From NCBI GenBank assembly GCA_947646015.1, contig CANSEY010000013.1:1-64000 (forward strand): DNA of 64,000 bases, written 5' to 3'. Every line of letters starts with the position of its first letter. Position 1 is the stretch's first letter. Both the position numbers and the translations under genes were made by a program. Shown here piece after piece: positions 3 to 19,791 of this stretch. A model generated the notes under the pieces. That model did no database searches, was not told the DNA's origin, and saw only the letters and a list, made by a program, of their open reading frames with translations. Source of the stretch: an uncultured Bacteroides sp. (GTDB taxonomy: Bacteria > Bacteroidota > Bacteroidia > Bacteroidales > Bacteroidaceae).

Positions 3-347
3 CATGAGTATACAAATGTATTTGATGGGGATGTCACAACTTCTTTTGATTATATCGAACCTTCCGGTGGTTGGTCAGGTCTTGATCTTGGAACTCCTAA
101 GCAGATAGGAAGAATTGTTTATACGCCTCGGAGTTATGATAACTATATTCGTTCGGGTGATGATTATGAGTTATTCTATTGTGCAAGGAGGAATAATTGG
201 AAATCTCTTGGAGACCAAAGGTCTAAAGCGGACTCGCTGATTTATATCAAAATTCCAGTGAATGCTTTACTTTTATTATGTAACAATACACGAGGAATAC
301 AGGAACGAATATTTGTGTATACAGCAGCTGAACAAATTTGGAAGTAA
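3..347 (+). CDS. C-terminal fragment of a discoidin-like surface protein
   Basis: The reading frame is open from base 3 to a TAA at 345-347; the start lies off the left edge. About 114 residues are visible. They read as a small beta-sandwich domain with GWSGLDLGTPKQIGRIVYTP, then RSGDDYELFYC and a basic-aromatic end. This pattern resembles the discoidin-like (F5/8 C-type) domain found at the C-terminus of many Bacteroides secreted proteins, often attached to transglutaminase-like modules. A carbohydrate or protein binding role is an inference from that family. No promoter can be assessed because the gene is cut. It is AT-rich like the rest of the host segment. Confidence 0.6.
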   Translation, partial: HEYTNVFDGDVTTSFDYIEPSGGWSGLDLGTPKQIGRIVYTPRSYDNYIRSGDDYELFYCARRNNWKSLGDQRSKADSLIYIKIPVNALLLLCNNTRGIQERIFVYTAAEQIWK

Positions 348-478
348 ATTCAGATATGATTTTAATAAAAACTTGATTTATTTTGCTAATTGTCATTTAT
401 TAAGCTAGCGATATATGATTTAGTAAAGATGAACAAGTTTAATAAGTAAATAATTATTAATGATTAAATTTTAAAATT

Positions 479-1201
479 ATGATTTCGAGAAAGAAAAGCC
501 TTTTTTTAAGCGTATCAGTATTGATTCTATTTGTGGCGTTAGTTGCACAAAGTTGTAGTTCGGAGAATGACGATTTTGTTGCTAATCCCAACTCATCATT
601 AGAAATGAGAGCTAACCTAGAATCAATGGATAATCGTGCAACAATTGTCAATTCTATAGCCGAATCTGATGAATTATTAGATTACGGAATGAACTGTATG
701 TTACTTGCTGAGAAGTTAAAATCATATACTTCAACTTTGACTCCAGAAGAATTTGATGAACTTATGAATAACTTAAATAATGATGATTATATGATAGAAC
801 TTGTGAGTAAGGTTGACATTGAAAAAGAGGCTTTAATGGTAGAGAATGCACGACAGGAACTATTAGCTAATAAAAGTTTTAAGTTGTTAGATGAGTCCGA
901 AAAAATGAATGTTTTTATTAGATTCTCTGATAATTCGCAGAATACTATGCAACATCTATTGCTAAAAAGTCCGGGTGAAAGTGCAGGAGGTGTTACTAAA
1001 GCGGAATGTAAGCGTAGATATGATGAAGACTACGCTTATGCTTCTGCTATTTATCTATCATCTATGCTCCTTTGTTCTTGTGCAACGGGGGGGCTTGGTG
1101 TATGTCTTTGTGCTATTGGTGCTTCTGCTGGCTATGACTATGCAACAACTCTTGCTGATCGTAGTTATTATGATTGTTTGTCAAATGCTATAGATCGCTA
1201 A
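479..1201 (+). CDS. Cys-rich lipoprotein of unknown function
   Basis: This 240-residue protein has a lipoprotein signal with a lipobox ending in AQSC near residue 26, so it should be exported and lipidated. Residues about 50-160 are helical and acidic. After a GG-containing stretch near residue 168 the composition changes. The last 70 residues carry a CKRR start, many Ala/Gly/Tyr and five further Cys, including CSC and CLC. The tail looks like a compact disulfide-rich or processed peptide. I recognise no family. The next small membrane gene begins at the base after this stop, so the two are probably co-transcribed. A peptide-precursor role is speculation. Confidence 0.7.
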   Translation: MISRKKSLFLSVSVLILFVALVAQSCSSENDDFVANPNSSLEMRANLESMDNRATIVNSIAESDELLDYGMNCMLLAEKLKSYTSTLTPEEFDELMNNLNNDDYMIELVSKVDIEKEALMVENARQELLANKSFKLLDESEKMNVFIRFSDNSQNTMQHLLLKSPGESAGGVTKAECKRRYDEDYAYASAIYLSSMLLCSCATGGLGVCLCAIGASAGYDYATTLADRSYYDCLSNAIDR

Positions 1202-1462
1202 ATGAGGTATTATAATATCTTTATAGTTTTAGCTATACTATCTGTATTGCTCATGACAATTAATAGAAACTATAATTATTTGATAAATGACTGGTATATT
1301 TCAGGTGTTTATGTGTTAATGTGGGTCTTTCTTTTTCTTTATACAGTAAGTAAAGTTCCTAAAAAGAAAAAAGGCTTGAAAGAATATCTTCCTAGCATTT
1401 TAGCCTTTCTTGTGGTTCTATTAAATGTCTTGGATGTGCTTAGAAGACATGTTATGTGTTAA
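1202..1462 (+). CDS. Small inner-membrane protein, unknown
   Basis: The ATG directly follows the TAA of the preceding lipoprotein gene, which implies translational coupling. The 86-residue product has three hydrophobic segments (about residues 4-20, 30-48 and 60-78) separated by a Lys-rich loop near residue 55. No catalytic motif is visible. Tight coupling to the Cys-rich lipoprotein suggests a shared role such as export, processing or protection, but this is inference only. Confidence 0.6.
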   Translation: MRYYNIFIVLAILSVLLMTINRNYNYLINDWYISGVYVLMWVFLFLYTVSKVPKKKKGLKEYLPSILAFLVVLLNVLDVLRRHVMC

Positions 1463-1542
1463 AATAAGTAGATGAAAACTTAGGAATAAATACTTAATGT
1501 TTTGTGGTTTATAATCAACTTTTTATTTATTCCTAAGTAATA

Positions 1543-3144
1543 ATGAGTTTTTATATGTCAAAAGTGAGTATTACTCAAATCGGCTTTGCTCTTCTTTGCA
1601 TTGGTAGTGTTTTTATGTATTCTACCCAGATAACCGATCCCTATATTGTTTCTAAATGGTTATATACGATCTTATTTGTTTTAATTATAACAATATATTG
1701 TTCAATTAGAATGTTATTAGGAAAATCTGTAAAATTTGATACACGATTGGCTGGGATGAGTATTGTTATTGTTTCTAGTTTACAAGCAATATATGGTCTG
1801 TCTCAATGTTTTAATATAACCACCTTTAATACTTTTTATAAGATAATGGGGAGTTTTGAAAATCCTACGGGATTTTCTGCTTGTCTTTGTGTCAGTTTAC
1901 CCTTTTTTGTTGTATTCCAATTATTAAATGAAAATAAGCAAATACGGTATCTAGTATGTTTTTTAGGGATTATTGTTGTAATAGCAATTGTACTATCATA
2001 TTCAAGAGCTGGAATTATTAGTGTTGCAATAGTAATTGCGATATTTTTGTTTCAAAAGCTTAAACAGAAAAGAATTTGGAAGTATCTATTATTATGTAGC
2101 AGTCTGATATTATTGTTGTTTGGTTGCTATTGGATGAAGAAAAACTCAGCCGATGGTAGACTGCTGATTTGGCAATGTGGTATAAATATGGTAAAAGATG
2201 CTCCTTGGATAGGTCATGGGTTGGGTAGTTTCGAAGCGCACTATATGGATTATCAGGCAAATTTCTTTAAGCAATGCGGACAAAGCCGTTTTTCTATGTT
2301 GGCAGATAATGTGAAACAACCATTTAATGAATATCTTGGACTTCTTTTAAATTTTGGGATTATTGGTTTATTAGTATTGTTGTTATTGATGGTAATAATT
2401 ATATATTGCTATAGGAAGAATCCAAGTGTAGAAAAGCAAATAGCCTTTTATTCTTTGTCTTCAATAGGAATATTCTCGTTCTTTTCTTATCCATTTGCAT
2501 ATCCTTTCGTTTGGGTTGTGACATTTTTAAGCATATTCATAATAACTAGTGAATATATCAAACCTTTATTTTCTAATATCCTAATAAAGAAAATAGCTTG
2601 TATGTTCATACTTACATATTCTCTTTTCGGGAGTAGTAAATTGTTCGAACGTATTCAAGCAGAATTAGACTGGGGAAAAGCTTCTACGCTAGCGTTATGT
2701 AAGTCATATAATGAAACTCTTCCAACCTATGAGAGATTAGAAAAGATGTTTGTGAGTAATCCCTATTTTCTCTATAATTATGCTGCTGTTCTTCAAGAAA
2801 TGAAGCAATATACCGAAAGTCTAGAAGTGGCTTTAAAATGTCGTCAATATTGGGCAGATTATGATTTAGAGTTAATAATTGGGGAAAATTACCAGCAGCT
2901 TAACAAACCTGAACTGGCGGAAAAATATTATAATAGTGCATCTATGATGTGCCCTTCGCGCTTTCTACCTCTTTATAAACTATTCCATTTATACAAAACG
3001 AATGGTGAAAAAGAACGATCGCTTGCTATGGCTGAGGCCGTTATTAGCAAACCGATGAAAATTAAGACAACTACTATTAGGATGATGAAAAGAGAAATGG
3101 AAAGAGAAATACAAAAAATGAATATGTCTATAAAACTAGAATGA
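1543..3144 (+). CDS. O-antigen-ligase-like membrane protein with TPR tail
   Basis: The protein has 533 residues. The first ~350 hold about ten transmembrane helices with a large periplasmic loop containing GSFENPTGFSA (about residue 103) and a Ser/Arg loop SYSRAGIIS. This layout is typical of the Wzy_C / O-antigen ligase family. The last ~150 residues form tetratricopeptide-like helices (YNYAAVLQEMKQYTESLEVA, then AEKYYNSASMMCPS). Family members polymerise or ligate glycans at the periplasmic face. The gene lies 80 bases after the small membrane gene, not in a polysaccharide cluster, so the substrate may be unusual. Alternative: a membrane component of a peptide or glycoconjugate export unit. 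Confidence 0.7.
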   Translation: MSFYMSKVSITQIGFALLCIGSVFMYSTQITDPYIVSKWLYTILFVLIITIYCSIRMLLGKSVKFDTRLAGMSIVIVSSLQAIYGLSQCFNITTFNTFYKIMGSFENPTGFSACLCVSLPFFVVFQLLNENKQIRYLVCFLGIIVVIAIVLSYSRAGIISVAIVIAIFLFQKLKQKRIWKYLLLCSSLILLLFGCYWMKKNSADGRLLIWQCGINMVKDAPWIGHGLGSFEAHYMDYQANFFKQCGQSRFSMLADNVKQPFNEYLGLLLNFGIIGLLVLLLLMVIIIYCYRKNPSVEKQIAFYSLSSIGIFSFFSYPFAYPFVWVVTFLSIFIITSEYIKPLFSNILIKKIACMFILTYSLFGSSKLFERIQAELDWGKASTLALCKSYNETLPTYERLEKMFVSNPYFLYNYAAVLQEMKQYTESLEVALKCRQYWADYDLELIIGENYQQLNKPELAEKYYNSASMMCPSRFLPLYKLFHLYKTNGEKERSLAMAEAVISKPMKIKTTTIRMMKREMEREIQKMNMSIKLE

Positions 3145-3210
3145 ATATGGAATTAATACGGTTGTTGTCAATCACTTCGCTTGTGCATTTAGGAATCTAC
3201 GGATTGTTTA

Positions 3211-4752
3211 TTGTGTGATAATAGAAATAAATATAGTAACCGAATGAGAATTTATAAAACACTAATGAATAAAACATTCATTTATCTGCTAATAGCAGTA
3301 TTGGCAGCTTGCAAAAGTACTCCTTACTCTGATGAAACTACTAAAAGTGACCTTCGTGCGCCTGCTTATCCGTTATTAACTTTGCATCCGCATGTGAAAC
3401 TTTGGTCTATGACGGATGAACTGAACAAACAGAATATGACTTTTGGCGGCAGCACACAACTTCCTTTTGTTGGCTTCTTACGGGTAGACGGTGCTATGTA
3501 CCGTTTTATGGGTAGTAAAGAACTGCCGATGCAAGCTATCGCTCCGATGGCGCTTGACCATGAAAAGTGGGAAGGAAAGTTCACTTCATTAGTTCCTGAT
3601 GAAGGATGGGAGCAACCGGATTTTGATGACAAGTACTGGCAATTGTCAGAAGGGGCATTTGGCACGCCTGGCATGTGGGAAGCAAGAACACAATGGACTT
3701 CTTCTAATATTTGGGTACGAAGAGAGGTTGAAGTTGATCCGTATCTTCTGGAGCATAAAAAGATTTATTTGCGCTATTCTCATGACGATGTATTTCAATT
3801 GTACATCAATGGGAAGCAATTGGTGAATACCGGATATGACTGGGGAGCAAACTTTAAAGTGGAAGTCCCGGACTCAATTCTGCAAACAATGAAAAGTGGA
3901 AAAGCGTTGATTGCCGCTCATTGTGAGAATCGTGTGGGAGGAGGATTGGTAGACTTCGGACTCTTTGCCGAGGAACCGACTATGCCGGTGGAAAAGGTAG
4001 CCCCCATCTCTTATGAAAAAGAGTGGACGGGAAGATATACTATGGAGCAACCTCAGGAAAATTGGGAAGCCAAAGAGTTTGACGATACAACATGGACAGA
4101 AGGACAGGCGGCCTTCGGCACGGATGATCAACGAAATGTGCATACTCCCTGGTTCTCACCTAATATATGGGTGAGGCGCGAACTGACATTCGACCCGGCG
4201 TTGGTGAAAAACAAGCAACTGTATTTACGCTATTCCCATGATGATGTATTTCAATTGTATGTGAATGGAATGCAACTGGTCAGCACGGGATATGAGTGGA
4301 AAAGTGATCTCAGAGTAAATATCCCGGATTCTATTGCAGAAACTATGAAAGATGGGAAAGCCGTGATTGCCGCTCATTGTGAGAATCGTATGGGAGGTGC
4401 ATTGGTTGACTTCGGACTATATGCAGAATTGAGGGAAGCTGAACAAACGTCTGTCGATGTGCAAGCAACCCAAACACATTATACCTTCGAATGTGGAGAT
4501 GTAGAACTGAAACTTAGCTTTACCGCTCCTTATCTGTTGGACGATCTGGAGACACTTGCCCGTCCGGTCAATTATATCTCTTATCAGGCTAAAGCATTGG
4601 ATGGCAAAGAACATGATGTTGCTGTTTATTTTGAAATAGACCCGCACAAGGCATTTCGTGCCGGACAATCTACACAAATATACGGAAACTCGCTCACATA
4701 CGGATGGATTTCAGAGGAATAATGCAAAGTGCTTGGACGAGAAAGGGATAAG
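3211..4752 (+). pseudogene. Disrupted glutaminase-like (DUF4964/DUF5127) lipoprotein gene
   Basis: An ORF of 503 codons ends at a TAA at 4720-4722. The likely start is the ATG at 3265 (MNKTF), giving a lipoprotein signal with lipobox LAAC. A DUF4964-like segment follows (APAYPLLTLHPHVKLWS). Two copies of a ~130-residue module come next, each with WVRRE, LYLRYSHDDVFQLYVNG-type and AAHCEN motifs. A DUF5127-like start (THYTFECGDVELKLSF) follows. Full family members are usually over 800 residues, so the C-terminal half is missing. In the same frame after the TAA the codons read CKVLGRERDK, resembling the conserved LGRKGD stretch of the family. Host sequence may therefore run to about 4752, with a nonsense mutation besides the element insertion. 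Confidence 0.65.
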
Positions 4753-5078
4753 TCGTTTTGTTCCACATTCTTCCATTTGAGGTTTTTGACCTGTTTTTGG
4801 GGAGTTAGGCAAACAAATCGCTACTTATCCGTTGCCTTTTCGGGATTGAAAATAGGTATGAAATTTACTTCCAAAACTGTTTTTCTACCCCTGTTCACCA
4901 CCGCAAGAACGCTGTTCTGTCTGTTTTTTGCTAATGCAAAGTTAGTCAAAATTTTCCGTATCAGGAAAAAATACAGTCTCAGATTGGAAGTCAAGGGGGC
5001 TTTTTCTATATTCCGCTATATTTTTCATGCCATTCATTTGCTCGCTATATAATAATTTTGCAAACAAAGGAATAGGTT
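4753..5078. other. Left end of the integrative element (attL region) and integrase leader
   Basis: No gene is supported in this stretch. Host homology appears to stop near 4752 and the first element gene starts at 5079, so the left attachment site and integrase arm sites should lie here. A GCAAA word occurs at 4724-4728 and again near 4937. I cannot define the core because the other end of the element is outside the window. Confidence 0.5.
5053..5060 (+). promoter_or_regulatory. Putative -7 promoter element of first integrase gene
   Basis: TAATTTTG fits the Bacteroides -7 consensus TAnnTTTG and lies 18 bases upstream of the integrase ATG. A TTTG word occurs at 5037-5040, but its spacing is shorter than the usual 19-21 bases, so the -33 element is not convincing. 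Confidence 0.45.
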
Positions 5079-6302
5079 ATGAATCAGGCAAATGTAAAGG
5101 TGTCGTTCTACCTGAAAAAGAGCGAGGCGGATGCCAATGGCGAATGTCCGGTAATGGCTAAGTTGAACATCGGAAAATACTCTGAAGCGGCATTCAGCGT
5201 GAAGATGAAAGTGCCGCAATCCCGATGGACTTCGGGGCGTGCGTCTGGCAAGAGTGTGACGGCAAAGGAAATCAACAACCGGCTGGATGAGATCCGTGCG
5301 GTGGCGTTGAGTATCTATAACGAGCAGTCTGCCGTCCGTGACGGTGTGACCGCTGAGGAAGTGAAAAGCATTTTGCTTGGAATGGCAAGCGGGCAGGAAA
5401 CACTGTTGAGCTATTTCAGGCAATTCATCAACAACTTTGAAAAGCGAGTTGGAGTCAACCGCACAGCCAAAAGTTTGCAGGCATACCGCAATGCCTATAG
5501 GCACATTGAGAAGTTTCTGCAAGAAAAATACAGGCTAACGGATATTCCTTTCTCGGCATTGGACCGCTCCTTCATCGACAAATACGACCTGTACCTTCGT
5601 ACCGAACGCAATCTCGCTCCTGGAACCGTCATCAACCTGACCGTCCAACTGAAAACCATCGTGGGTGAGGCTATCGCTGACGGTATCATTACCGTTTATC
5701 CGTTCATGGGTTACGAGCCGGTTCGTCCGAAAGCGGTGCAGAAGTATCTTACCGATGAAGAGCTGCAACGGCTTATGACCACTCCGCTCCATAGGCAGAC
5801 ACTTTACCTTGTCCGTGACATGTTCCTGTTTTCCTGCTTCACCGGCATTTCATACAGGGATATGCGCTCGCTGACAAAAGAAAACCTGTCGCTTGCGGAA
5901 GACGGCACATGGTGGATTAAAAGTGCCCGCCAGAAGACCAAGATAGAATTTGAAATCCCCTTGTTGGACTTGCCGTTACAGATTCTGAAAAAGTACAGTG
6001 ATGCCGTTTCTGATAACAGGCTGCTACCGATGTATTGTAATTCCAACATGAATCTCTACCTGAAAGAGATTGCCCGGATTTGCAACATCAACCGTCCGCT
6101 GGTATTTCACGTGGCCAGGCACACCTACGCCACGGAAATCACCCTTTCGCATGGGGTTCCTCTTGAAACCGTCAGCAAAATGCTCGGACATAGCCGGATT
6201 GAAACCACACGTATTTACGCGAAAGTGACCGATGACAAGATTGATTCCGACACAAGGACTTTGAACCGGAAAATATCGGAACGTTTTTCCGTCGTGATTT
6301 GA
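5079..6302 (+). CDS. Tyrosine recombinase 1 (integrase)
   Basis: The product has 407 residues in the usual order: an N-terminal arm-DNA-binding domain (residues about 5-90), a SAM-like core-binding domain (about 110-210) and a catalytic domain (220-400). Visible catalytic features are HVARHTYATE (HxxR), MLGHSRIETTRIYAKV (H and nucleophilic Tyr) and a conserved Lys region before them. The box-I region reads FTGISYRDM, so the canonical first Arg is not in its normal place, as in IntDOT-like enzymes. It probably catalyses integration and excision of the element by strand exchange through a 3'-phosphotyrosine. It is first at the left end and followed after 23 bases by a second recombinase. Confidence 0.93.
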   Translation: MNQANVKVSFYLKKSEADANGECPVMAKLNIGKYSEAAFSVKMKVPQSRWTSGRASGKSVTAKEINNRLDEIRAVALSIYNEQSAVRDGVTAEEVKSILLGMASGQETLLSYFRQFINNFEKRVGVNRTAKSLQAYRNAYRHIEKFLQEKYRLTDIPFSALDRSFIDKYDLYLRTERNLAPGTVINLTVQLKTIVGEAIADGIITVYPFMGYEPVRPKAVQKYLTDEELQRLMTTPLHRQTLYLVRDMFLFSCFTGISYRDMRSLTKENLSLAEDGTWWIKSARQKTKIEFEIPLLDLPLQILKKYSDAVSDNRLLPMYCNSNMNLYLKEIARICNINRPLVFHVARHTYATEITLSHGVPLETVSKMLGHSRIETTRIYAKVTDDKIDSDTRTLNRKISERFSVVI

Positions 6303-6325
6303 TTACCTCTTAAAAAAACAAGAAC

Positions 6326-7627
6326 ATGGAAAAGAATATAGAAAACCAGAATATCAAGCGGCGTAGTACATTTGCCGTATTGTTCTATATAAACCGCACG
6401 AAAGTCCGCAAGGACGGAATGTGCCAGTTATTGTGCAAGGTAAGCATCGATGCCGAATGGGCACAGATAGGAACCAAAGTATCCGTCAATCCCTCTATTT
6501 GGAATCCCGACAAAGGACGCGCCGACGGACGGAGTGAAAATGCAGTTACGGTGAACCGCGCCATAGATGACCTGACAGACGAGATAACCGGACATTACGA
6601 CAGGATAAAGAACAGTCTGGGGTTCATTACAGCGGAACTTGTCAAGAATGCAGTCAAAGGCATCGGGCAGAAACCACTTACCCTGCTTGCCTTGTTCAGG
6701 GAGCATAACGAGGAGTTCAAGAAGCGTATCGGGATAGACCGCATACAGGAAACATACGACTCCTACAAGCGTTCCTACAAGCATCTTTCCGCTTTTGTTC
6801 AGGAGAAGAAAGGCGTGGAGGACGTGACATTGAGAAGCCTTGACCGTGCGTTTTATGACGACTTCGAGTTGTTCCTGCGCACGAACCGCAACCAAAAACC
6901 CAAGACCGTACATGAACACCTGTACCGCCTGAAGAAGCTGACAATGCGGGCGGTCAGCCAGGGGACATTGCGCCGTGACCCTTACTGCCGCCTGCATCCC
7001 GAACTGCCAAAAAGAAAAAGCCGGCACATGAAATTGGAGGACTTGAAGACACTGATGACCACCCCGGTGGAGAAGCCTCAACTGCAATTCGTAAGGGATA
7101 TGTTCATTTTCTCGACATTTACCGGATTGGCGTATGCGGACTTGAAAAAACTGTCGGTCAATGATGTCACGCAGGCTGAGGACGGCACATGGTGGATTCA
7201 CATCCACAGGCAAAAGACGGATACGCTTTCGTCTGTCCGCCTGTTGGATATTCCCCTTCAAATCATCGAGAAATATCGTAGCCAAAGAACCGGGGACAAG
7301 GTATTCAATGTTTACAATCGTGGATATTTTATAACATTGACACGAGAGCTGGGACAGGTATATGGCTTTGATTTGACCTACCATCAGGCCAGGCATAATT
7401 TCGGGACCCACATCACCCTCTCGCTCGGTGTGCCGATAGAGACGGTCAGCCGCATGATGGGACACAACTCCATTTCCACCACCCAGCTGTATGCCCAAGT
7501 AACGGACACCAAAGTGGACGAGGATATGAAACGGCTAAAGTCCACAGGTTTCGGAAAACAGATACAGCTTTGCGAAGAAGATTTCATCGTCAAGAAAAAA
7601 CGGGGAAGAAAGTCTGAAATGGCATAA
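6326..7627 (+). CDS. Tyrosine recombinase 2
   Basis: This 433-residue protein has the same three-domain layout as its neighbour and clear sequence similarity in the catalytic domain (FTGLAYADL, then YHQARHNFGTH, then MMGHNSISTTQLYAQV). Arg I is replaced by Ala in the box-I region, while HxxR, the second His and the Tyr are present. A Lys/Arg-rich tail ends the protein. The gene is 23 bases after recombinase 1 and probably co-transcribed. Paired recombinases at one end suggest both are needed for insertion or excision, or that one acts in resolution or inversion; the sequence does not decide this. Confidence 0.92.
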   Translation: MEKNIENQNIKRRSTFAVLFYINRTKVRKDGMCQLLCKVSIDAEWAQIGTKVSVNPSIWNPDKGRADGRSENAVTVNRAIDDLTDEITGHYDRIKNSLGFITAELVKNAVKGIGQKPLTLLALFREHNEEFKKRIGIDRIQETYDSYKRSYKHLSAFVQEKKGVEDVTLRSLDRAFYDDFELFLRTNRNQKPKTVHEHLYRLKKLTMRAVSQGTLRRDPYCRLHPELPKRKSRHMKLEDLKTLMTTPVEKPQLQFVRDMFIFSTFTGLAYADLKKLSVNDVTQAEDGTWWIHIHRQKTDTLSSVRLLDIPLQIIEKYRSQRTGDKVFNVYNRGYFITLTRELGQVYGFDLTYHQARHNFGTHITLSLGVPIETVSRMMGHNSISTTQLYAQVTDTKVDEDMKRLKSTGFGKQIQLCEEDFIVKKKRGRKSEMA

Positions 7628-7634
7628 AATAAAA

Positions 7635-7682
7635 ACGGAGAAATGCCCTTTGTAAAAAGGAAATCATTTCTCCGTCTCTTTT
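7635..7682. terminator. Bidirectional intrinsic terminator
   Basis: Perfect 11-bp arms ACGGAGAAATG (7635-7645) and CATTTCTCCGT (7665-7675) are followed by a T-rich run on the plus strand and preceded by an A-rich run that serves the minus strand. It separates the convergent recombinase operon and the excisionase-like genes. Confidence 0.75.
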
Positions 7683-7693
7683 AGTGAACGATG

Positions 7694-8005
7694 CTATACC
7701 CATCGTTGTTCTTCCCGGCAACGCTTGTAGGAATCCTCCAGTATCTTCAGAATATCCGATTCCTTATACAGAGTCTTGCCCTGCACCATGTAATAAGGAA
7801 CCACCCCGAATGTCCGGTACTCCTGCAATGTGCGCCTGCTTACCCGCAGGACTTTGGAGAGTTCCTCGTCAGTGAGGAAGCGCTCACCGTTAAAGAGGGA
7901 TTTCGGCATCTTCTCAATCACGGAGAGCATCTTCTCCATTTTTTCCAGCCCTTGAAACATCACGTCGATCCGAGGGTCTTTGTCGTCCAAGAAATGATAG
8001 CTCAT
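7694..8005 (-). CDS. Excisionase-like helix-turn-helix protein 1
   Basis: A 103-residue basic protein. Residues about 45-95 form a MerR-type / HTH_17 DNA-binding fold: FLTDEELSKVLRVSRRTLQ, then a wing with GVVPYYMVQGKTLYKESDI. The N-terminal half is a coiled-coil-like helix (MFQGLEKMEKMLSVIEKM). Small HTH proteins of this type act as recombination directionality factors or regulators in Bacteroides conjugative elements. Its start overlaps the stop of the upstream gene by 4 bases, so it is the last of three coupled genes. Confidence 0.85.
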   Translation of the reverse strand: MSYHFLDDKDPRIDVMFQGLEKMEKMLSVIEKMPKSLFNGERFLTDEELSKVLRVSRRTLQEYRTFGVVPYYMVQGKTLYKESDILKILEDSYKRCREEQRWV

Positions 8006-8298
8006 AATCTGCTTTTTATTAAAGGGTGATAATTCAAATCCAACAATCTCTGTACGTCTTCAGGCTTGTAGAACAGCTTGTTCTTGATACGGCTGAAAGG
8101 CAATATCCCTTTGTTGCGATATACCTGTAGTGTCTTCTTGTTGATGCGAAGCACATCGCACACCTCCTGATTATCCAGCCAGTTTTTCAAGCCGAGGTCC
8201 TCGGCCGGACGGCATACCCGCGTCATCCGTTCCTCAAAATCACAGAACCGGACACGCAATTCTTCAAAAGTCTGTTTGTCAACACATATTATTTCCAT
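8002..8298 (-). CDS. Excisionase-like helix-turn-helix protein 2
   Basis: A 98-residue paralogue of its two neighbours. The HTH_17-type segment reads WLDNQEVCDVLRINKKTLQ with the wing KGILPFSRIKNKLFYKPEDV. It overlaps the downstream gene by 4 bases and follows the upstream gene by 19. It probably binds DNA near the attachment sites or promoters to control excision. The exact target is unknown. Confidence 0.85.
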   Translation of the reverse strand: MEIICVDKQTFEELRVRFCDFEERMTRVCRPAEDLGLKNWLDNQEVCDVLRINKKTLQVYRNKGILPFSRIKNKLFYKPEDVQRLLDLNYHPLIKSRL

Positions 8299-8317
8299 AA
8301 TCCTTGCTTCATTTTAA

Positions 8318-8623
8318 TTAAACATTTGGCTGATGTCTGAACCTCGCCGGCAATGACTTGCCCTTTTGGTTGAGGAACGCCTCCACTTCGGATGCCTTGT
8401 AGTAGGTTCTCCCGTCAATCATGTAATAGGTCACGAGCTTCTTCTGGCGGTAACGCGCCAGCGTGCGTTTGGTGATGCCGAGCAGCCGGCACAGGTCGTA
8501 GTTGTCCAAGAGCGTGTCGCCGTCCAGGCATTCCTTCAGCTTGTTCATACGCTCCAATGCCCGCTCTATCCTGTCGAACCGTTCCATGATTTGGGCGAAC
8601 ATCTCGCTGTTTATCTGTAACAT
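8318..8623 (-). CDS. Excisionase-like helix-turn-helix protein 3
   Basis: A 101-residue protein, first of the three-gene set. The N-terminal helix carries heptad-like spacing (MFAQIMERFDRIERALERM). It is followed by the HTH segment LLDNYDLCRLLGITKRTLA and the wing KKLVTYYMIDGRTYYKASEV. A Lys/Arg-rich tail ends the protein. The region upstream of its start contains several perfect dyads, candidate sites for this family. Confidence 0.85.
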   Translation of the reverse strand: MLQINSEMFAQIMERFDRIERALERMNKLKECLDGDTLLDNYDLCRLLGITKRTLARYRQKKLVTYYMIDGRTYYKASEVEAFLNQKGKSLPARFRHQPNV

Positions 8624-13249: not shown

Positions 13250-13726
13250 TTAAACATCTGTATCGTAAATCCTCTTTTGCAGCAGGTCTATAAAGTTCAT
13301 GGCATCCATAGGGGTGGAGCGAGAGAGGTCGAACGAGAGTATCATAGCCTGCAGGCTGTTGTCATACGAACTTTTGCTGCCCTTGCGGTCTTGCCCGCCC
13401 TCCGTTTTTTCGGGGATGGAGACCAACGCCTCCGCTTCGCTGCCGTCTATGCCGGAAAAGACGAAAGAACCGTCGTCCTGCCGGTCGATTTTCCCTCCGG
13501 CGGCTATTATCTGTTCCATCACTTTCCCTACATGGCTTTCCGGGAATCCTGTGGTCAGCACAAAATTTCCGCCTTTACGCTGCCGGTGCATGACACGGTA
13601 GCCTGTGGCGCGTGCCAAGGCGAAAGCCCCGCAACCGTAGGCGGAGAAAAACTTGCCCGACCGGGTCACGAGGAAACGGCTGTCGCCGAGTTCCTGCTGT
13701 TGTTGTATCAATTCGCGTTCTGTCAT
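13250..13726 (-). CDS. MutS-domain-I-like DGR accessory protein (MSL)
   Basis: A 158-residue protein whose first ~90 residues resemble MutS domain I: DSRFLVTRSGKFFSAYGCGA, then ALARATGY, then FVLTTGFPESHVGKVMEQI. The remaining part is polar and lacks MutS ATPase features. MutS-like (MSL) proteins are known accessory genes of some diversity-generating retroelements. The ATG overlaps the stop of the RT remnant (ATGA), so it was translated with the RT. It is intact although the RT is broken. Its role in DGRs is not established; mismatch handling during retrohoming is a guess. Confidence 0.75.
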   Translation of the reverse strand: MTERELIQQQQELGDSRFLVTRSGKFFSAYGCGAFALARATGYRVMHRQRKGGNFVLTTGFPESHVGKVMEQIIAAGGKIDRQDDGSFVFSGIDGSEAEALVSIPEKTEGGQDRKGSKSSYDNSLQAMILSFDLSRSTPMDAMNFIDLLQKRIYDTDV

Positions 13727-14232
13727 ACAGTCCTCCTCAGTTCTTTGATTTCATTACAAATCTCCTCTTTTTTGCATTCAATCTGTCTGTACCGTTTTTT
13801 CAACACGACTTTCTCCAAGTGTCCGGCAAAATAGATGACCTGCCACCATTCCTTACCGATACGGCTCATGACCTTGCACCGCAGGTTGTAGGAGGAAAAA
13901 TGCCGCATCATTCCCAAATAGGAGTTTATCGTACTGACAAACTCCTCCCCGTGGGTTTTCACGTAATCGGGCGAGCCTGCCGCCAAGCGGTTCAGGCGGT
14001 CGATGGCATCGTAGCAGAAGCCGACTGTGCGGTTGCTCAGGTATTTCCGCCCCGGAAGTATCATCCCTCCGATAAACAGGACACCTTTCGTGTAATGTTG
14101 CAGATAGATCTTGCGCGGGTGCAGCGACAGCCCGTGTTCGGAGAGCCAGCCGGCAATTTTCGCTTTCACCTCTATGTTGTTCAACAACCGGTAAGTGTCG
14201 CGGTATAGGGGTAATTCTTCGGATAATGCCAT
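13723..14232 (-). pseudogene. Fused avd / DGR reverse-transcriptase remnant
   Basis: From the ATG at 14232 the product has 169 residues. The first ~18 (MALSEELPLYRDTYRLLNN) resemble the start of Avd-type four-helix-bundle proteins. From about residue 20 the sequence changes to a reverse-transcriptase thumb region: WLSEHGLSLHPRKIYLQHY, GGMILPGRKYLSNRTVG, INSYLGMMRHFSSYNLR and VVLKKRYR. The finger and palm half with the YxDD motif is absent. The simplest reading is an in-frame deletion joining avd codon ~19 to the RT 3' half, removing most of avd, the template repeat and the catalytic core. A TTG at 14307 would extend the frame into the hairpin region and is unlikely as a start. Confidence 0.75.
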
Positions 14233-14258: not shown

Positions 14259-14305
14259 ACCCGCTTCGCGGGTATTCAGCCTTTATCAACGAGCGGCTAC
14301 GCCGC
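14259..14305 (-). other. Paired hairpins downstream of variable region 1
   Basis: Two short perfect hairpins lie just past the adhesin stop codon: ACCCGC/GCGGGT with a 3-base loop at 14259-14273, and GCGGC/GCCGC with a 3-base loop at 14293-14305. DGR target genes usually carry a GC-rich initiation sequence and a hairpin or cruciform after the variable repeat that guides retrohoming; these fit that position. Confidence 0.6.
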
Positions 14306-14337: not shown

Positions 14338-15909
14338 TCAGAAAGCCAAGACCGGACGCACGAAACTACTTCTGCTGTACTTATAGCTGCGGAACACGTC
14401 GCCGTTGCGCACACTCACATAAAGAGCGCGGCGCGCCGGATAGTCGTAGAACTCCGAGGAGGACCAGTACCAGTCAGACTTTAAGCCTGATACCACTGTC
14501 TTGCCTTCAAACAAAGAAGCGCGGTTTTGATAAACATTCCACATCTGGCCGATGGAGGGCAAAAACCAGCCGGTGCTATTGGCAGGGGACGGGACTTTGT
14601 GCGCATAATCCACAACGGCATAGTAGGTGGCAGGATAACCGGAATCTTCGGTGGCATTCAACTTGTCCTTGCCGCCGGCAGCGGTGATGATTTTCTGTGT
14701 CCAGGCGTAGCCGCTCCAGTCGATGTCAGGTGTAGAGTAATTGTTCTGTTTGTTTCCGCTTCCATCCGTGGGGCAGCAACCCAACTCGGTTCCGTAAACG
14801 CCCCACTGACAATAACCGTTTGTGGCATCCTGCAAGGCAACGGCATAGCCGTGGCACTTCTGCTGACCGATACCGGTGGCGGAGTAATCGGAGGCATCGT
14901 TTTCGTGATGACCGGCATGGAACACGATGGCGATAACGCTTGCTTTCTGTTCTTCGGTCAAAGTTTCGTCTTTGCCTACAATATTGCCGTCGGCAAGGAG
15001 GTAGTCCCCTACTTGCAAATTGTGATCTTTGTCAATCGTCGGTGCTCCGTCCACCTTATAGGTCTTGTATGAGCTTACGCTGATATTGTTCGGGGTGATG
15101 AAAAACTCCTTCTTGCCGTCGGCATAGCTGCCGGTGAGGGTTACGGTATTGCCTTGTCCGGGACGGACGAAGTAGCGGTATGTGCCGTCCGTATTGCGGC
15201 AGGGCTTGGCCTCTCCACTGAAATCGGCTGTAGTAGCAATCACATAGTCGGGAATGGAGGTGTCGGTGAACTTATACACCGTCTTGGGCATTTCGACTAC
15301 GGCGAGTGCCATGCGGTGGGTCATGGAGAATGAGAGCGAGAGCTTGCCGTCGGCTTTGCTTCCCGAGCCCGTGGCGGTCATGAGGTCGGAGGCTGTGTAG
15401 CCTTGCGTGTAGTCGCTCTGATCAGCTTCCGGCTGCCAGTCATTGATAAGCGTGGCGAAGAAATCGCCATCGCTCGTGGTGTCGGTGGCATTTACCTTGC
15501 CCGCCATCTTCGCTGTCTCTTGATAGGGATAGTAGAGGAAATACTTCTCGCCCGCCATTCCGCCGGCAAGGGTTACGCCCGCTTCGGGTTGCCAGGTAAG
15601 ACTGCCGTTCGTGCCTGCTGTGGCGGTGAGTTTCACATTGTCATAGACTATCGCCCCATTGCGCACAAGGTAGAGTCCGCAGGCGTCACTGGCGGTAAAC
15701 TCGGTACGGTAACCGTCCTCGGTAGCACGGGTAGCGGCTTTCTGCGAGCCGTCAGCCGAAGTTGTCAGGGCATAGCCGCCGTCGGTGATGGTGATGGCGA
15801 GCGGTGCGGCATTGTCAGCACCGGGCAGGGGAAGCTCCTCCTGCGTGCAGCCGGTCAGCAGCAGTGCCGCCGCCCAAAGGGTATGTAGGATATTTCGTTT
15901 CATTGTCAC
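14338..15909 (-). CDS. Pilus-tip-type adhesin, DGR target 1
   Basis: The product has 523 residues (521 if the second ATG at 15903 is used). A lipoprotein signal ends at LLTGC. Residues ~40-330 resemble the fimbrillin-family beta-sandwich (ATRATEDGYRTEFTASDACG, HRMALAVVEMPKTVYK). The last ~200 residues form a DUF1566 / C-type-lectin-like domain: SGYAWTQKII, STGWFLPSIGQMWNVY, YWSSSE, FVRPVLAF. The final ~46 residues contain the DGR variable positions. It should be a surface pilus subunit, probably the tip binder. It is 173 bases after target 2 in the pilus operon. Confidence 0.88.
   Translation of the reverse strand: MTMKRNILHTLWAAALLLTGCTQEELPLPGADNAAPLAITITDGGYALTTSADGSQKAATRATEDGYRTEFTASDACGLYLVRNGAIVYDNVKLTATAGTNGSLTWQPEAGVTLAGGMAGEKYFLYYPYQETAKMAGKVNATDTTSDGDFFATLINDWQPEADQSDYTQGYTASDLMTATGSGSKADGKLSLSFSMTHRMALAVVEMPKTVYKFTDTSIPDYVIATTADFSGEAKPCRNTDGTYRYFVRPGQGNTVTLTGSYADGKKEFFITPNNISVSSYKTYKVDGAPTIDKDHNLQVGDYLLADGNIVGKDETLTEEQKASVIAIVFHAGHHENDASDYSATGIGQQKCHGYAVALQDATNGYCQWGVYGTELGCCPTDGSGNKQNNYSTPDIDWSGYAWTQKIITAAGGKDKLNATEDSGYPATYYAVVDYAHKVPSPANSTGWFLPSIGQMWNVYQNRASLFEGKTVVSGLKSDWYWSSSEFYDYPARRALYVSVRNGDVFRSYKYSRSSFVRPVLAF
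14368..14445 (-). other. DGR variable region 1 (VR1)
   Basis: Compared with VR2 at 16113-16190, 14 of the 26 codons differ, by 25 bases. Every differing codon ends in the same C or T in both copies, and only first and second positions vary. This is the footprint of adenine mutagenesis at AAC/AAT (and one TAT) template codons. In this copy the variable sites encode, from N to C, D,Y,R,R,Y,S,R,D,F,R,S,Y,Y,S. Confidence 0.88.
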
Positions 15910-16002: not shown

Positions 16003-16049
16003 ACCCGCTTCGCGGGTATTCAGCCTTTATCAACGAGCGGCTACGCCGC
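16003..16049 (-). other. Paired hairpins downstream of variable region 2
   Basis: ACCCGC/GCGGGT (16003-16017) and GCGGC/GCCGC (16037-16049), the same pair as after target 1. Only a 1-base indel and two substitutions separate the two intervals between hairpins and stop codon, so the whole unit has been copied or kept under selection. Confidence 0.6.
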
Positions 16050-16082: not shown

Positions 16083-17717
16083 TCAGAAAGCCAAGACCGG
16101 ACGCACGAAACTAAGTCTGCTGCTCTTACGGTCGAAGTTCACGCGGCCGTTGCTCACATTCACAAAAAGAGCGTAGTCCGCCGGAAGGCTGTAGAACTCC
16201 GAGGAGGACCAGTACCAGTCAGACTTTAAGCCTGATACCACTGTCTTGCCTTCAAACAAAGAAGCGCGGTTTTGATAAACATTCCACATCTGGCCGATGG
16301 AGGGCAAAAACCAGCCGGTGCTATTGGCAGGGGACGGGACTTTGTGCGCATAATCCACAACGGCATAGTAGGTGGCAGGATAACCGGAATCTTCGGTGGC
16401 ATTCAACTTGTCCTTGCCGCCGGCAGCGGTGATGATTTTCTGTGTCCAGGCGTAGCCGCTCCAGTCGATGTCAGGTGTAGAGTAATTGTTCTGTTTGTTT
16501 CCGCTTCCATCCGTGGGGCAGCAACCCAACTCGGTTCCGTAAACGCCCCACTGACAATAACCGTTTGTGGCATCCTGCAAGGCAACGGCATAGCCGTGGC
16601 ACTTCTGCTGACCGATACCGGTGGCGGAGTAATCGGAGGCATCGTTTTCGTGATGACCGGCATGGAACACGATGGCGATAACGTTCTTACCGTTCTCCGG
16701 CTGCGGCTTGGTCTCTGCCCACTCCATCGTGCCGTCGGCATAGAGCTTGCGCAGGCCACCGTCGCTCCAGGTGCCGTCGGAGTAGTAATAGTCGCCGATT
16801 TTCGGTTCTGTTTCCGTGCCGTCATAGGTGATGGTCACGCCCACATTCTCGCTGCCGCCGGCGTTCCACGTTCCGCCCTTGGCTGCGGTCACCTCTATGC
16901 CACTGGCTTTCACGGTGATGGTGTAGGCATACCGCTTGCCACCGAAAAACCCAAATTTGCCGGCAGCTTCTGTTTCGGGAGTGTAGGTAAAGTCATTGCT
17001 GCCTATGCTGATTCGGATGAGCGGCTTGCCCGTCATATCCTGCGGCGGCACTAACGCCTCGTATTTCTTCGTTGCGGCATCGTAATAGGGCTTTATCTCG
17101 CCGTCCGATTGGTCACCCGGTGATACCAAGCCGGCGGTTGAGTGCGTTAGCGGGTCTCCGAAAATGGTGACGGTCGCACCCTCCAACTCCTCTTCCGTAA
17201 TGCCTTCGCCAGCTTTGAGAATTACTTCGATTTTCGCCATGCGGTGGATGAAACGGAGATTTATGGCTTGGTCATAACGCCCTATGGCACTGGCGTACAG
17301 GACATCGAAAGCGGCGTACCCGCCACTTTGGTCGGAAATATCCGTTTCCGATTCTATGTCCGGGGTCCATGCACTGACGCGGGCTTCATCGGTGTTCTTC
17401 CAATAGAAGGCATTATCGGCATCCTTCGGGCTTGCATTGCCCGATGCGTCCATCACGTATGTTTTGTTACCAAACACGCCTTCCAGTGACACTCTAATCT
17501 CCTCGCCGCCCGTCCACGCATCCTTACCTCCGGCGCGGGTCTGCGGCTGCGCCACCTCCGCCGTCAGTTGCAGCGGGTACTTGCCGTCGGGCAGGGGCGC
17601 GGTGCTTTCATCCTCACTGCTACAGGAAGCGAGCACCCCACAGATGAGCATCATAACCGGCAACCAGCCGCCGATGCGCGGCCACGGCCTTCTCGCTATG
17701 TTCCTTATTATTTTCAT
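16083..17717 (-). CDS. Pilus-tip-type adhesin, DGR target 2
   Basis: The chosen start is the ATG at 17717 (MKIIRN), giving 544 residues; the frame is open to 17777. A lipoprotein signal ends at LASC. The fimbrillin-family part (residues ~35-330) has QTRAGGKDAWTGGEE and RFIHRMAKIEVIL. The C-terminal 200 residues are the DUF1566 / lectin-like domain shared with target 1, including NSTGWFLPSIGQMW and YWSSSEFY. It should be a second, alternative surface adhesin for the same pilus system. Its N-terminal half differs from target 1, so each may fit a different pilus position or host. Confidence 0.88.
   Translation of the reverse strand: MKIIRNIARRPWPRIGGWLPVMMLICGVLASCSSEDESTAPLPDGKYPLQLTAEVAQPQTRAGGKDAWTGGEEIRVSLEGVFGNKTYVMDASGNASPKDADNAFYWKNTDEARVSAWTPDIESETDISDQSGGYAAFDVLYASAIGRYDQAINLRFIHRMAKIEVILKAGEGITEEELEGATVTIFGDPLTHSTAGLVSPGDQSDGEIKPYYDAATKKYEALVPPQDMTGKPLIRISIGSNDFTYTPETEAAGKFGFFGGKRYAYTITVKASGIEVTAAKGGTWNAGGSENVGVTITYDGTETEPKIGDYYYSDGTWSDGGLRKLYADGTMEWAETKPQPENGKNVIAIVFHAGHHENDASDYSATGIGQQKCHGYAVALQDATNGYCQWGVYGTELGCCPTDGSGNKQNNYSTPDIDWSGYAWTQKIITAAGGKDKLNATEDSGYPATYYAVVDYAHKVPSPANSTGWFLPSIGQMWNVYQNRASLFEGKTVVSGLKSDWYWSSSEFYSLPADYALFVNVSNGRVNFDRKSSRLSFVRPVLAF
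16113..16190 (-). other. DGR variable region 2 (VR2)
   Basis: Aligned codon by codon with VR1. In this copy the variable sites encode, from N to C, S,L,D,Y,F,N,S,R,N,F,D,R,S,L. Invariant codons between them (for example GTG, GGC, AAG, AGA) are identical to VR1, so this is targeted variation and not general drift. Confidence 0.88.
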
Positions 17718-17837
17718 ATTGTCTTTATTTATTTCGTTTTGTGCCACTGCCCGTTGCGACGCGGGCTGCCGCACCATTTATTATATATGGCGTGCCTCCG
17801 TCTTACGCCTGATGCACGGCAGTGGCTTTCAGACACA

Positions 17838-18900: not shown

Positions 18901-19791
18901 TCAGTTAGCATCCCCATTGCCGCTTTCTACCTCGTTCCAGCCCGTGATGGTTGCGCCCGTTACCCCGGCCTCTACGGGCAAAAGCAGATTACCCGTGAGT
19001 TTAACCGGTTTGGTGCCGTTATTGAAGTCCCTTATGGCCTCGGTAAGGTCGCTCACTACCCGCTGCGTGTCACCGTTGTTGAAAGTGATGTCCACCGTCA
19101 GCGTATGCGTTTCCGTCGGGACGATGCCGAGCAGTCGGAAAAAGATTGTGAACTTGTTGCCGTCCTGCCTGAAAGCGTTTGTTACTTGTGCCGCTGCACT
19201 CCGGTCGCCTGTTGCCATATCCGCTGCCGAAGCCACGCCGGAGAGCGTTGCCGTAGCCGACTGTACACGGCTGTAGTCGCCTTCCGTGGCGGTCAGTTCG
19301 ATGTCGAGCCTGCGCACGTATTGTCTCATCGGGGCGGTGACGTGCAGGGTGTCGTCCGCCACGACGCTGATGTCCTGGTGCGAGGCGAAGAGGTAGCCGA
19401 GGTGCGGCTCTATTGCACCCGTCAGATCCACCGGATTCACCGTTGCCTTGTTTCCGTCGATACTAATCCCCTCCGGGGAGTTGTACACCGTCAGACCGTA
19501 GCCACCGGGCGCGAGCAGCGCGTCGAACACGTTGGTCGCCGCGCTCACGTTCTGTTCCCTCCCGCCGATGCGCAGTGTGTATGCCTGCGGTATGTCCGCC
19601 TCGGTGCTCTTTCCGCTCCAGTCCGTGGTTACGACCACCGCCCCACGGTCGGGGTGCGGCGTGTCATAGAGGTCGTCCTTCACGCACGAGGTCAGTATGG
19701 TCACCGCACCTATTAGATATAATAAGGTATAAGCCTTTCCGTATGCTCCCATATATTCCTTTATCTGTCGTATGATTGTCGTTGTATTCAT
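18901..19791 (-). CDS. FimB/Mfa2-type fimbrial anchor (DUF5119-like)
   Basis: A 296-residue lipoprotein with lipobox LTSC and CVKDDLYDTPHPDRGAV after it, a pattern seen in DUF5119/Mfa2-type anchors. Two beta-sandwich domains follow, with APMRQYVRRLDIELTATEGD near residue 150 and GATITGWNEVESGNGD at the end. Members cap or anchor the pilus at the outer membrane. It is 15 bases downstream of the DUF3575 gene and directly upstream of the fimbrillin. Confidence 0.8.
   Translation of the reverse strand: MNTTTIIRQIKEYMGAYGKAYTLLYLIGAVTILTSCVKDDLYDTPHPDRGAVVVTTDWSGKSTEADIPQAYTLRIGGREQNVSAATNVFDALLAPGGYGLTVYNSPEGISIDGNKATVNPVDLTGAIEPHLGYLFASHQDISVVADDTLHVTAPMRQYVRRLDIELTATEGDYSRVQSATATLSGVASAADMATGDRSAAAQVTNAFRQDGNKFTIFFRLLGIVPTETHTLTVDITFNNGDTQRVVSDLTEAIRDFNNGTKPVKLTGNLLLPVEAGVTGATITGWNEVESGNGDAN

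What the first reader, a model, noticed from the sequence alone, without database searches (positions are those of the whole stretch)
13723..14232. DGR core lost by an in-frame avd-RT fusion, freezing the adhesins
Seen: a 169-residue ORF starts like an Avd four-helix-bundle protein and switches near residue 20 to the thumb part of a DGR-type reverse transcriptase (HPRKIYLQHY, LSNRTVG, INSYLGMMRH). The YxDD palm and any template repeat are absent here and elsewhere in the window. Inference: one deletion of about 1-1.5 kb took most of avd, the template repeat and the catalytic half, but kept the frame and the coupled MSL gene. The adhesin repertoire would be locked, unless a DGR elsewhere in the genome acts in trans.
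Basis: partly seen in the sequence, partly recalled or inferred. Interest (0 to 1): 0.92.

Follow-up and report, generated by a model that had tools for sequence, protein, structure and literature searches.

The report
Adhesin-diversifying retroelement killed by a deletion
A bacterial gene cassette that once rewrote the tips of two sticky surface proteins has lost its template and most of its copying machinery, leaving a short hybrid gene and two adhesins that probably can no longer be diversified from this site.

Summary
Confirmed. The 169-aa ORF (14232-13723, minus strand) is Avd codons 1-18 joined in frame to the thumb of a DGR-type reverse transcriptase (RT). G154, an intact relative in the same genus, has the same order: two targets, avd, TR, RT, MSL. 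Its corresponding points lie 1,415 bp apart; between them are the rest of avd, the TR and the catalytic half of RT. Among 258 (partly overlapping) loci tested, only the window's own copies combine Avd and thumb.

The two adhesins carry real VRs: 25 differences, none at third codon positions, 22 of 23 comparable sites adenine in G154's TR, beside 493 identical bp. So the DGR was active recently. No matching TR or RT was found in the own genome, but that assembly is 74.7% complete.

It is not isolated. Of 31 avd loci in the genus, 22 keep RT in one frame, 3 have it split, 1 is cut with stops, 5 show none in the stretch fetched (some uncertain). G081 independently keeps MSL and RT thumb only.

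Inactivated DGRs and RT-less targets were already described: a new, well-resolved member of a known kind. Freezing is likely in cis, unproven for the cell.

The parts
14179..14232 (-). Avd codons 1-18 (avd start retained)
   Evidence: 83% to G154 Avd, 94% to G153:C103 avd product; all 43 N-terminal hits lie in ORFs also hit by full Avd
14173..14178 (-). junction, 6 bases not assignable to avd or RT
   Evidence: DNA comparison with avd and RT relatives
13723..14172 (-). RT thumb remnant (G154 RT residues ~275-418), reading on in frame from avd
   Evidence: PHROG RT E 2.6e-13; 52% to G154 RT; agrees at 24 of 24 conserved thumb columns
13250..13726 (-). MSL (MutS domain I-like) gene, complete, ATGA overlap with the fusion's stop
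   Evidence: Pfam MutS_I E 3.5e-6; 41% to G154 MSL; overlap read
14338..15909 (-). target adhesin 1 with Lcl_C-like C-terminus
   Evidence: Lcl_C E 2.1e-5, 25.2 bits, below its cut-off of 34.9; C-terminus 42% to a G154 target
14345..14466 (-). VR1 (variable span 14369-14445)
14260..14272 (-). hairpin CCCGC-N3-GCGGG after VR1, before avd ATG (second hairpin 14293-14305)
   Evidence: a like hairpin lies before avd in G154, G153, G151, G016
16083..17777 (-). target adhesin 2, Mfa-like fimbrillin with the same C-terminal module
   Evidence: Mfa_like_1 E 1.9e-22; Lcl_C 1.8e-5, below its cut-off
16090..16211 (-). VR2 (variable span 16114-16190)
16004..16016 (-). hairpin after VR2 (second hairpin 16037-16049)
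14446..14938 (-). 493-bp module identical to 16191-16683, just upstream of the first variable site
18901..19791 (-). Mfa2-type fimbrial anchor in the same gene cluster
   Evidence: Pfam Mfa2 E 3.4e-9

Best explanation
This is the remnant of a type V pilus DGR whose core was removed by an internal deletion of about 1.4 kb. Shown: avd codons 1-18 run in frame into the RT thumb; TR, the rest of avd and the catalytic RT half are missing here; MSL, both VR-bearing adhesins and the VR hairpins remain; the VRs were once diversified by adenine mutagenesis. Inferred: one recent deletion did it. The hybrid protein has only the start of Avd and no active site, so it cannot make cDNA, and there is no template. 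The adhesins are therefore frozen unless an unseen cognate DGR acts in trans. The intact reading frame is probably chance plus youth, perhaps helped by coupling to MSL.
For: Intact order target-target-avd-TR-RT-MSL in G154, with 1,415 bp between the corresponding points. N-terminus is Avd, C-terminus is RT. No second fusion: only window copies have both parts among 258 loci, and no other match in 399 family, 158 genus or 393 order genomes (genomes may overlap between calls) starts before residue 10. Own genome: the thumb remnant is the only close match to G154 RT, and Avd of G154 has no match at E 0.001. VR1 as query finds VR2 but no TR, while the same kind of search in G154's locus finds its TR from its VR at 80.8%, E 2.9e-30. 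VR signature: 25 of 25 differences at codon positions 1 or 2 (P 4e-6); 22 of 23 comparable sites are A in G154's TR (P 9e-11); both P values treat sites as independent. 493 bp of identical flank dates diversification as recent.
Against: The own assembly is 74.7% complete in 100 contigs, so a trans DGR may be unseen. No intact allele of the same lineage was found, so deletion ends and a single event are not mapped. An assembly join cannot be excluded without reads. The VR pair could also look young because gene conversion homogenised the flanks while sparing the VRs. 24 of 24 conserved thumb positions agree, which fits youth but also fits a retained function; the 33 comparison sequences were fetched with the window as query, and RTs of broken loci score in about the same range as intact ones, so this measure tells little. 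Loci first fetched were not in the test for a fusion.
Confidence: 0.88

Rival explanations
1. The locus is a remote target cassette still rewritten in trans by a DGR in the unassembled part of the genome or in co-resident elements.
For: VRs and downstream hairpins, the target-side elements, are intact; diversification was recent; the genome is 74.7% complete. For Treponema denticola it has been proposed that remote targets may stay functional because one RT and TR suffice (PMC4891356, passages).
Against: No cognate RT or TR in the assembled part. The other DGR-like RT, at C7, matches G154 RT only at E 0.011. None of the 258 loci then held has a TR-compatible stretch with fewer than 20 of 122 mismatches, apart from the VRs themselves.
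Confidence: 0.12
2. The junction is an assembly error and the strain has an intact DGR here.
For: Draft assembly with 100 contigs; VR/TR repeats may disturb assembly, and one avd locus (G153:C103) stops at a contig end.
Against: The join lies in non-repeat coding sequence inside a 105-kb contig, is exactly in frame, and no detached Avd, TR or RT piece of this kind was found elsewhere in the assembly.
Confidence: 0.06
3. The thumb plus MSL remnant is kept by selection as a small protein with its own role.
For: Open frame, ATGA coupling to MSL, 24 of 24 conserved thumb residues; G081 independently keeps an MSL-like gene plus RT thumb without avd or palm.
Against: In G081 the thumb is out of frame with MSL; no fused homologue in any set searched; conserved thumb residues do not separate broken from intact loci; a recent deletion explains the same facts.
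Confidence: 0.06

Closest known systems
Inactivated DGRs of the DiGReF survey (PMC3521204; passages read), including a frameshifted RT in Bacteroides sp. 9_1_42FAA
   Same: RT disabled recently while VRs still show adenine-only changes; a Bacteroides case included
   Different: There the VR/TR pairs were intact and the lesion was a stop, frameshift or insertion; here TR, most of avd and the RT palm are gone and the ends are joined in frame
Treponema denticola isolates with target genes but no RT or TR (PMC4891356; passages read)
   Same: VR-bearing targets left after loss of the core
   Different: No fused avd-RT stub in the passages seen; other target family, not pilus proteins
Bacteroides tip-pilin DGRs (Macadangdang et al., known only through one sentence and the reference in PMC12632263; the paper itself is not held)
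   Same: DGRs diversifying type V pilus tips in Bacteroides
   Different: Those are described as diversifying; this one lacks template and enzyme
Anabaena all3226, remnant TR-VR homology without RT (PMC7517822; passages read)
   Same: Proposed removal of the diversifier after a good variant is selected
   Different: Dispersed paralogue without proximal RT genes or pseudogenes; here the RT stub remains beside the targets

Membership tests
Functional DGR | Intact RT with YxDD palm | tested here: not met
   Only G154 RT residues ~275-418 remain, after YVDD
Functional DGR | Template repeat | tested here: not met
   Absent in window and not found in the assembled own genome; positive control
Functional DGR | Complete accessory protein Avd | tested here: not met
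   18 codons left
Inactivated DGR / RT-less DGR target locus | VRs differing at template adenines, codon positions 1-2 | tested here: met
   25 of 25 at positions 1-2; 22 of 23 comparable at adenines of G154's TR; the locus's own TR is gone, so a relative's TR was used
Inactivated DGR / RT-less DGR target locus | Remnant in the syntenic place of an intact relative | tested here: met
   G154 order
Inactivated DGR / RT-less DGR target locus | No diversification in living cells | not testable with these tools
   Needs clone or strain sequencing
Conserved avd-RT fusion family | Homologues with the same unit | tested here: not met
   Only window copies among 258 loci; none seen

The most novel reading that the evidence does not exclude
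Pilus-tip adhesin cassettes in this genus go through repeated 'diversify, then lock' cycles: the DGR core is deleted between the first avd codons (or MSL) and the RT thumb once a useful adhesin arises, while VR, hairpin and often MSL stay, so that a locked cassette could be re-armed by recombination with another DGR. The chimeric avd of G016:C53 hints at such exchange near the avd start.
Probability: 0.12. Interest if true: 0.7.

Novelty: new member of a known kind. Interest (0 to 1): 0.42.

Why it matters
It is a cleanly dated loss: two adhesins whose VRs differ at sites that are almost all template adenines, beside 493 identical bases, next to a core that is now gone. With several other broken cores in the genus, it makes the rate and selective meaning of DGR loss countable.

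Tried and rejected
Pfam, NCBIfam and PDB sequence searches of the short ORF gave no significant match; PHROGs did. DNA searches of plasmids and phages with the region found nothing. tblastn of the ORF found 8 phage records and 1 plasmid record, all below 60% identity. The avd stub of G016:C94 gave no Pfam family at E 0.01.

A same-lineage intact allele was sought with the DGR DNA and the pilus DNA in 158 genus genomes. Only diverged loci came back, so deletion ends could not be mapped base by base and no microhomology claim is made. Nine homologues align to the ORF from residues 3-16 (L072, L031, L035, L038, L044, L140, L141, L022, L095), which at first looked like fusions. Eight of the nine show YxDD in the same frame; L072 shows none, but is a 531-aa frame that matches RT residues 20-425 and has a separate avd. 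None is hit by Avd.

Paper searches for MutS-like DGR genes and for ICE-borne DGR adhesins gave 0 and 0 papers; searches on DGR remnants, loss or truncation gave 5, 1, 14 and 2.

Full report
What is there. On the minus strand of the window, 14232..13723 encodes 169 aa. Residues 1-18 are an Avd start, and from about residue 21 on it is the C-terminal (thumb) part of a DGR reverse transcriptase. tblastn with the parts of an intact relative places Avd residues 1-18 at 14232-14179 (83%) and RT residues 275-418 at 14175-13747 (52%), in the same frame. PHROGs gives reverse transcriptase for residues 21-142 (E 2.6e-13), and 'Avd protein of DGR' for the relative's Avd (E 1.1e-29). As a test of the short N-terminus, its first 24 residues were run against all stop-to-stop ORFs (40 aa or more) of 258 loci, many of which overlap. 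43 ORFs were hit, and all 43 were also hit by full-length Avd; four are the window's own copies. Only those four contain both an Avd-like and a thumb-like part.

The intact comparison. G154 (unnamed, same genus, one contig, 99% complete) carries two targets, avd, a TR, RT and MSL in that order. Its RT is RVT_1 in Pfam (E 2.1e-16) and its Avd is bAvd (E 2.8e-16). From the end of avd codon 18 to RT codon 275 is 1,415 bp in G154. This stretch holds the remaining avd, the TR and the palm. In the window six bases at the seam (14173-14178) cannot be assigned to either gene. The fusion's stop overlaps the MSL start as ATGA. Single-event deletion is inferred: the nearest RTs are 61% (L008, residues 29-134 only) and 53% (G298, G154). 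The genus is probably Bacteroides: a same-genus contig (G047:C90, 176,198 bases) and another (G058:C57, 107,517) have exactly the lengths of named Bacteroides contigs; this is inference.

The targets. Two genes, 14338-15909 and 16083-17777, share an identical 493-bp stretch that runs up to the first variable site, then differ at 25 sites within 77 bp, then share 47 identical bp. All 25 differences are at codon positions 1 or 2 (P 4e-6). Of 23 that could be compared with the TR of G154, 22 are adenine there (P 9e-11); two lie beyond a 3-base length difference and were left out. This is the DGR signature. With no change in 493 bp, the rule of three puts flank divergence below about 0.6%, so the VRs were rewritten recently, unless conversion spared them. 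Hairpins follow both VRs. In BPP-1 such a hairpin is needed for efficient retrohoming (PMC3240598, passages including part of the abstract); that it is used here is inference.

No template or enzyme. Only the VRs match a TR-compatible pattern in the window. With VR1 as query, the own genome gives VR2 (80%, E 1.8e-24) and then only matches of 16 and 14 bases. As a control, G154's VR finds its TR at 80.8%. G154 RT as query finds the thumb remnant and, at E 0.011, an RT at C7, which looks like a phage DGR (my reading). RVT_1 finds five places: one in the window at 45020, C8, C7, C16 and C27. I read C16 and C27 as group II intron pieces and did not classify C8. The assembly is 74.7% complete, so a trans source is not excluded.

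How it works, or no longer does. Eighteen residues of Avd cannot form its helical bundle, and the thumb alone has no active site (established knowledge of the families). Without TR RNA there is nothing to copy. So diversification in cis has ended and the last-written versions of the two adhesins are fixed. Pfam places target 2 among Mfa-like fimbrillins and finds an Mfa2 anchor in the cluster; integrases, a two-component pair and a ThiF-like protein lie nearby, which I read as a conjugative element.

How common it is. In 158 genus genomes, Avd of G154 found 31 loci in 25 genomes (the window itself was not among them). I fetched all 31 and looked for RT (tblastn there re-found Avd in 29). 22 have RT in one frame; one of these has an internal TGA, G060's runs to a contig end, and G153:C159's is about 20 residues shorter than G154's. 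3 have RT split between frames (G074, G047:C90, G078). 1 is a cut piece with stops (G064). 5 show no RT: G016 twice, G151 (contig ends 0.9 kb on), G153:C103 (contig ends within avd) and G011 (weak Avd match). G016 and G151 have no match to G154 RT at E 0.001 in 99%-complete genomes. Five further loci were RT-only; one of these (G021) is a fragment in two frames. G081 was found by its thumb: a VR-like target, a weak MSL match (27%, E 3.8e-5), then RT thumb from about residue 296, without avd or palm. So core loss recurs, by different lesions. Frameshifts may in part be sequencing errors.

Is the remnant used? It agrees at 24 of 24 columns that are at least 90% conserved in 33 relatives. Nine intact RTs outside that set agree at 18-23 of 24, and three broken ones at 17 of 24, 21 of 24 and 20 of 22. 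The 33 were fetched with the window as query, and broken loci score much like intact ones, so this fits a young deletion but does not prove function.

What is known. Inactivated DGRs, including a frameshifted one in Bacteroides, and the argument that inactivation was recent, are in PMC3521204 (passages). Targets without RT and TR are in PMC4891356 (passages). Removal of the diversifier after selection is proposed in PMC7517822 (passages). I saw no report of an avd-RT fusion in the listings, which cover open-licence papers only. Verdict: the observation and its reading hold, and it is a new member of a known kind.

Noticed in passing
L145 (G081:C16:112000-117571), 3900-5070: Independent core loss: VR-like target, hairpin, MSL-like gene, then RT thumb only; avd and RT palm gone, thumb out of frame with MSL.
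   Followed up: partly
L242 (G016:C53) 12811-12518 minus, and L241 (G016:C94) 3025-3396: Two adhesin loci ending in avd stubs, with no match to G154 RT in a 99% complete genome; the C53 avd switches to a G154-like sequence near codon 30, and one stub lies upstream of hcp/vgrG-like genes, the other of a pyrB-like gene (my reading of the ORFs).
   Followed up: partly
L010/L143 (Bacteroides reticulotermitis JCM 10512), 6004-6396 of L010: DGR RT split between frames just after the YVDD motif, with a separate 140-aa thumb frame.
   Followed up: partly
L148 (G325:C118) 4244-4997: MSL match directly followed by only the C-terminal part of RT with YVDD; avd and the RT N-terminus not seen.
   Followed up: no
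L086 (G000:C7:58000-66000), 21-4708: A second DGR-like RT in the own genome beside a large phage-like protein with an asparagine-rich C-terminus.
   Followed up: no
L084 (G000:C16:17000-30000), 6136-8444: Another fimbrillin cluster with broken lectin-like ORFs; G011 and G013 gave matches of the same length and identity.
   Followed up: no
window 45020-45673 minus: A further RT domain over the Pfam cut-off (RVT_1, E 2.7e-43, 560-aa frame), probably a group II intron RT.
   Followed up: no
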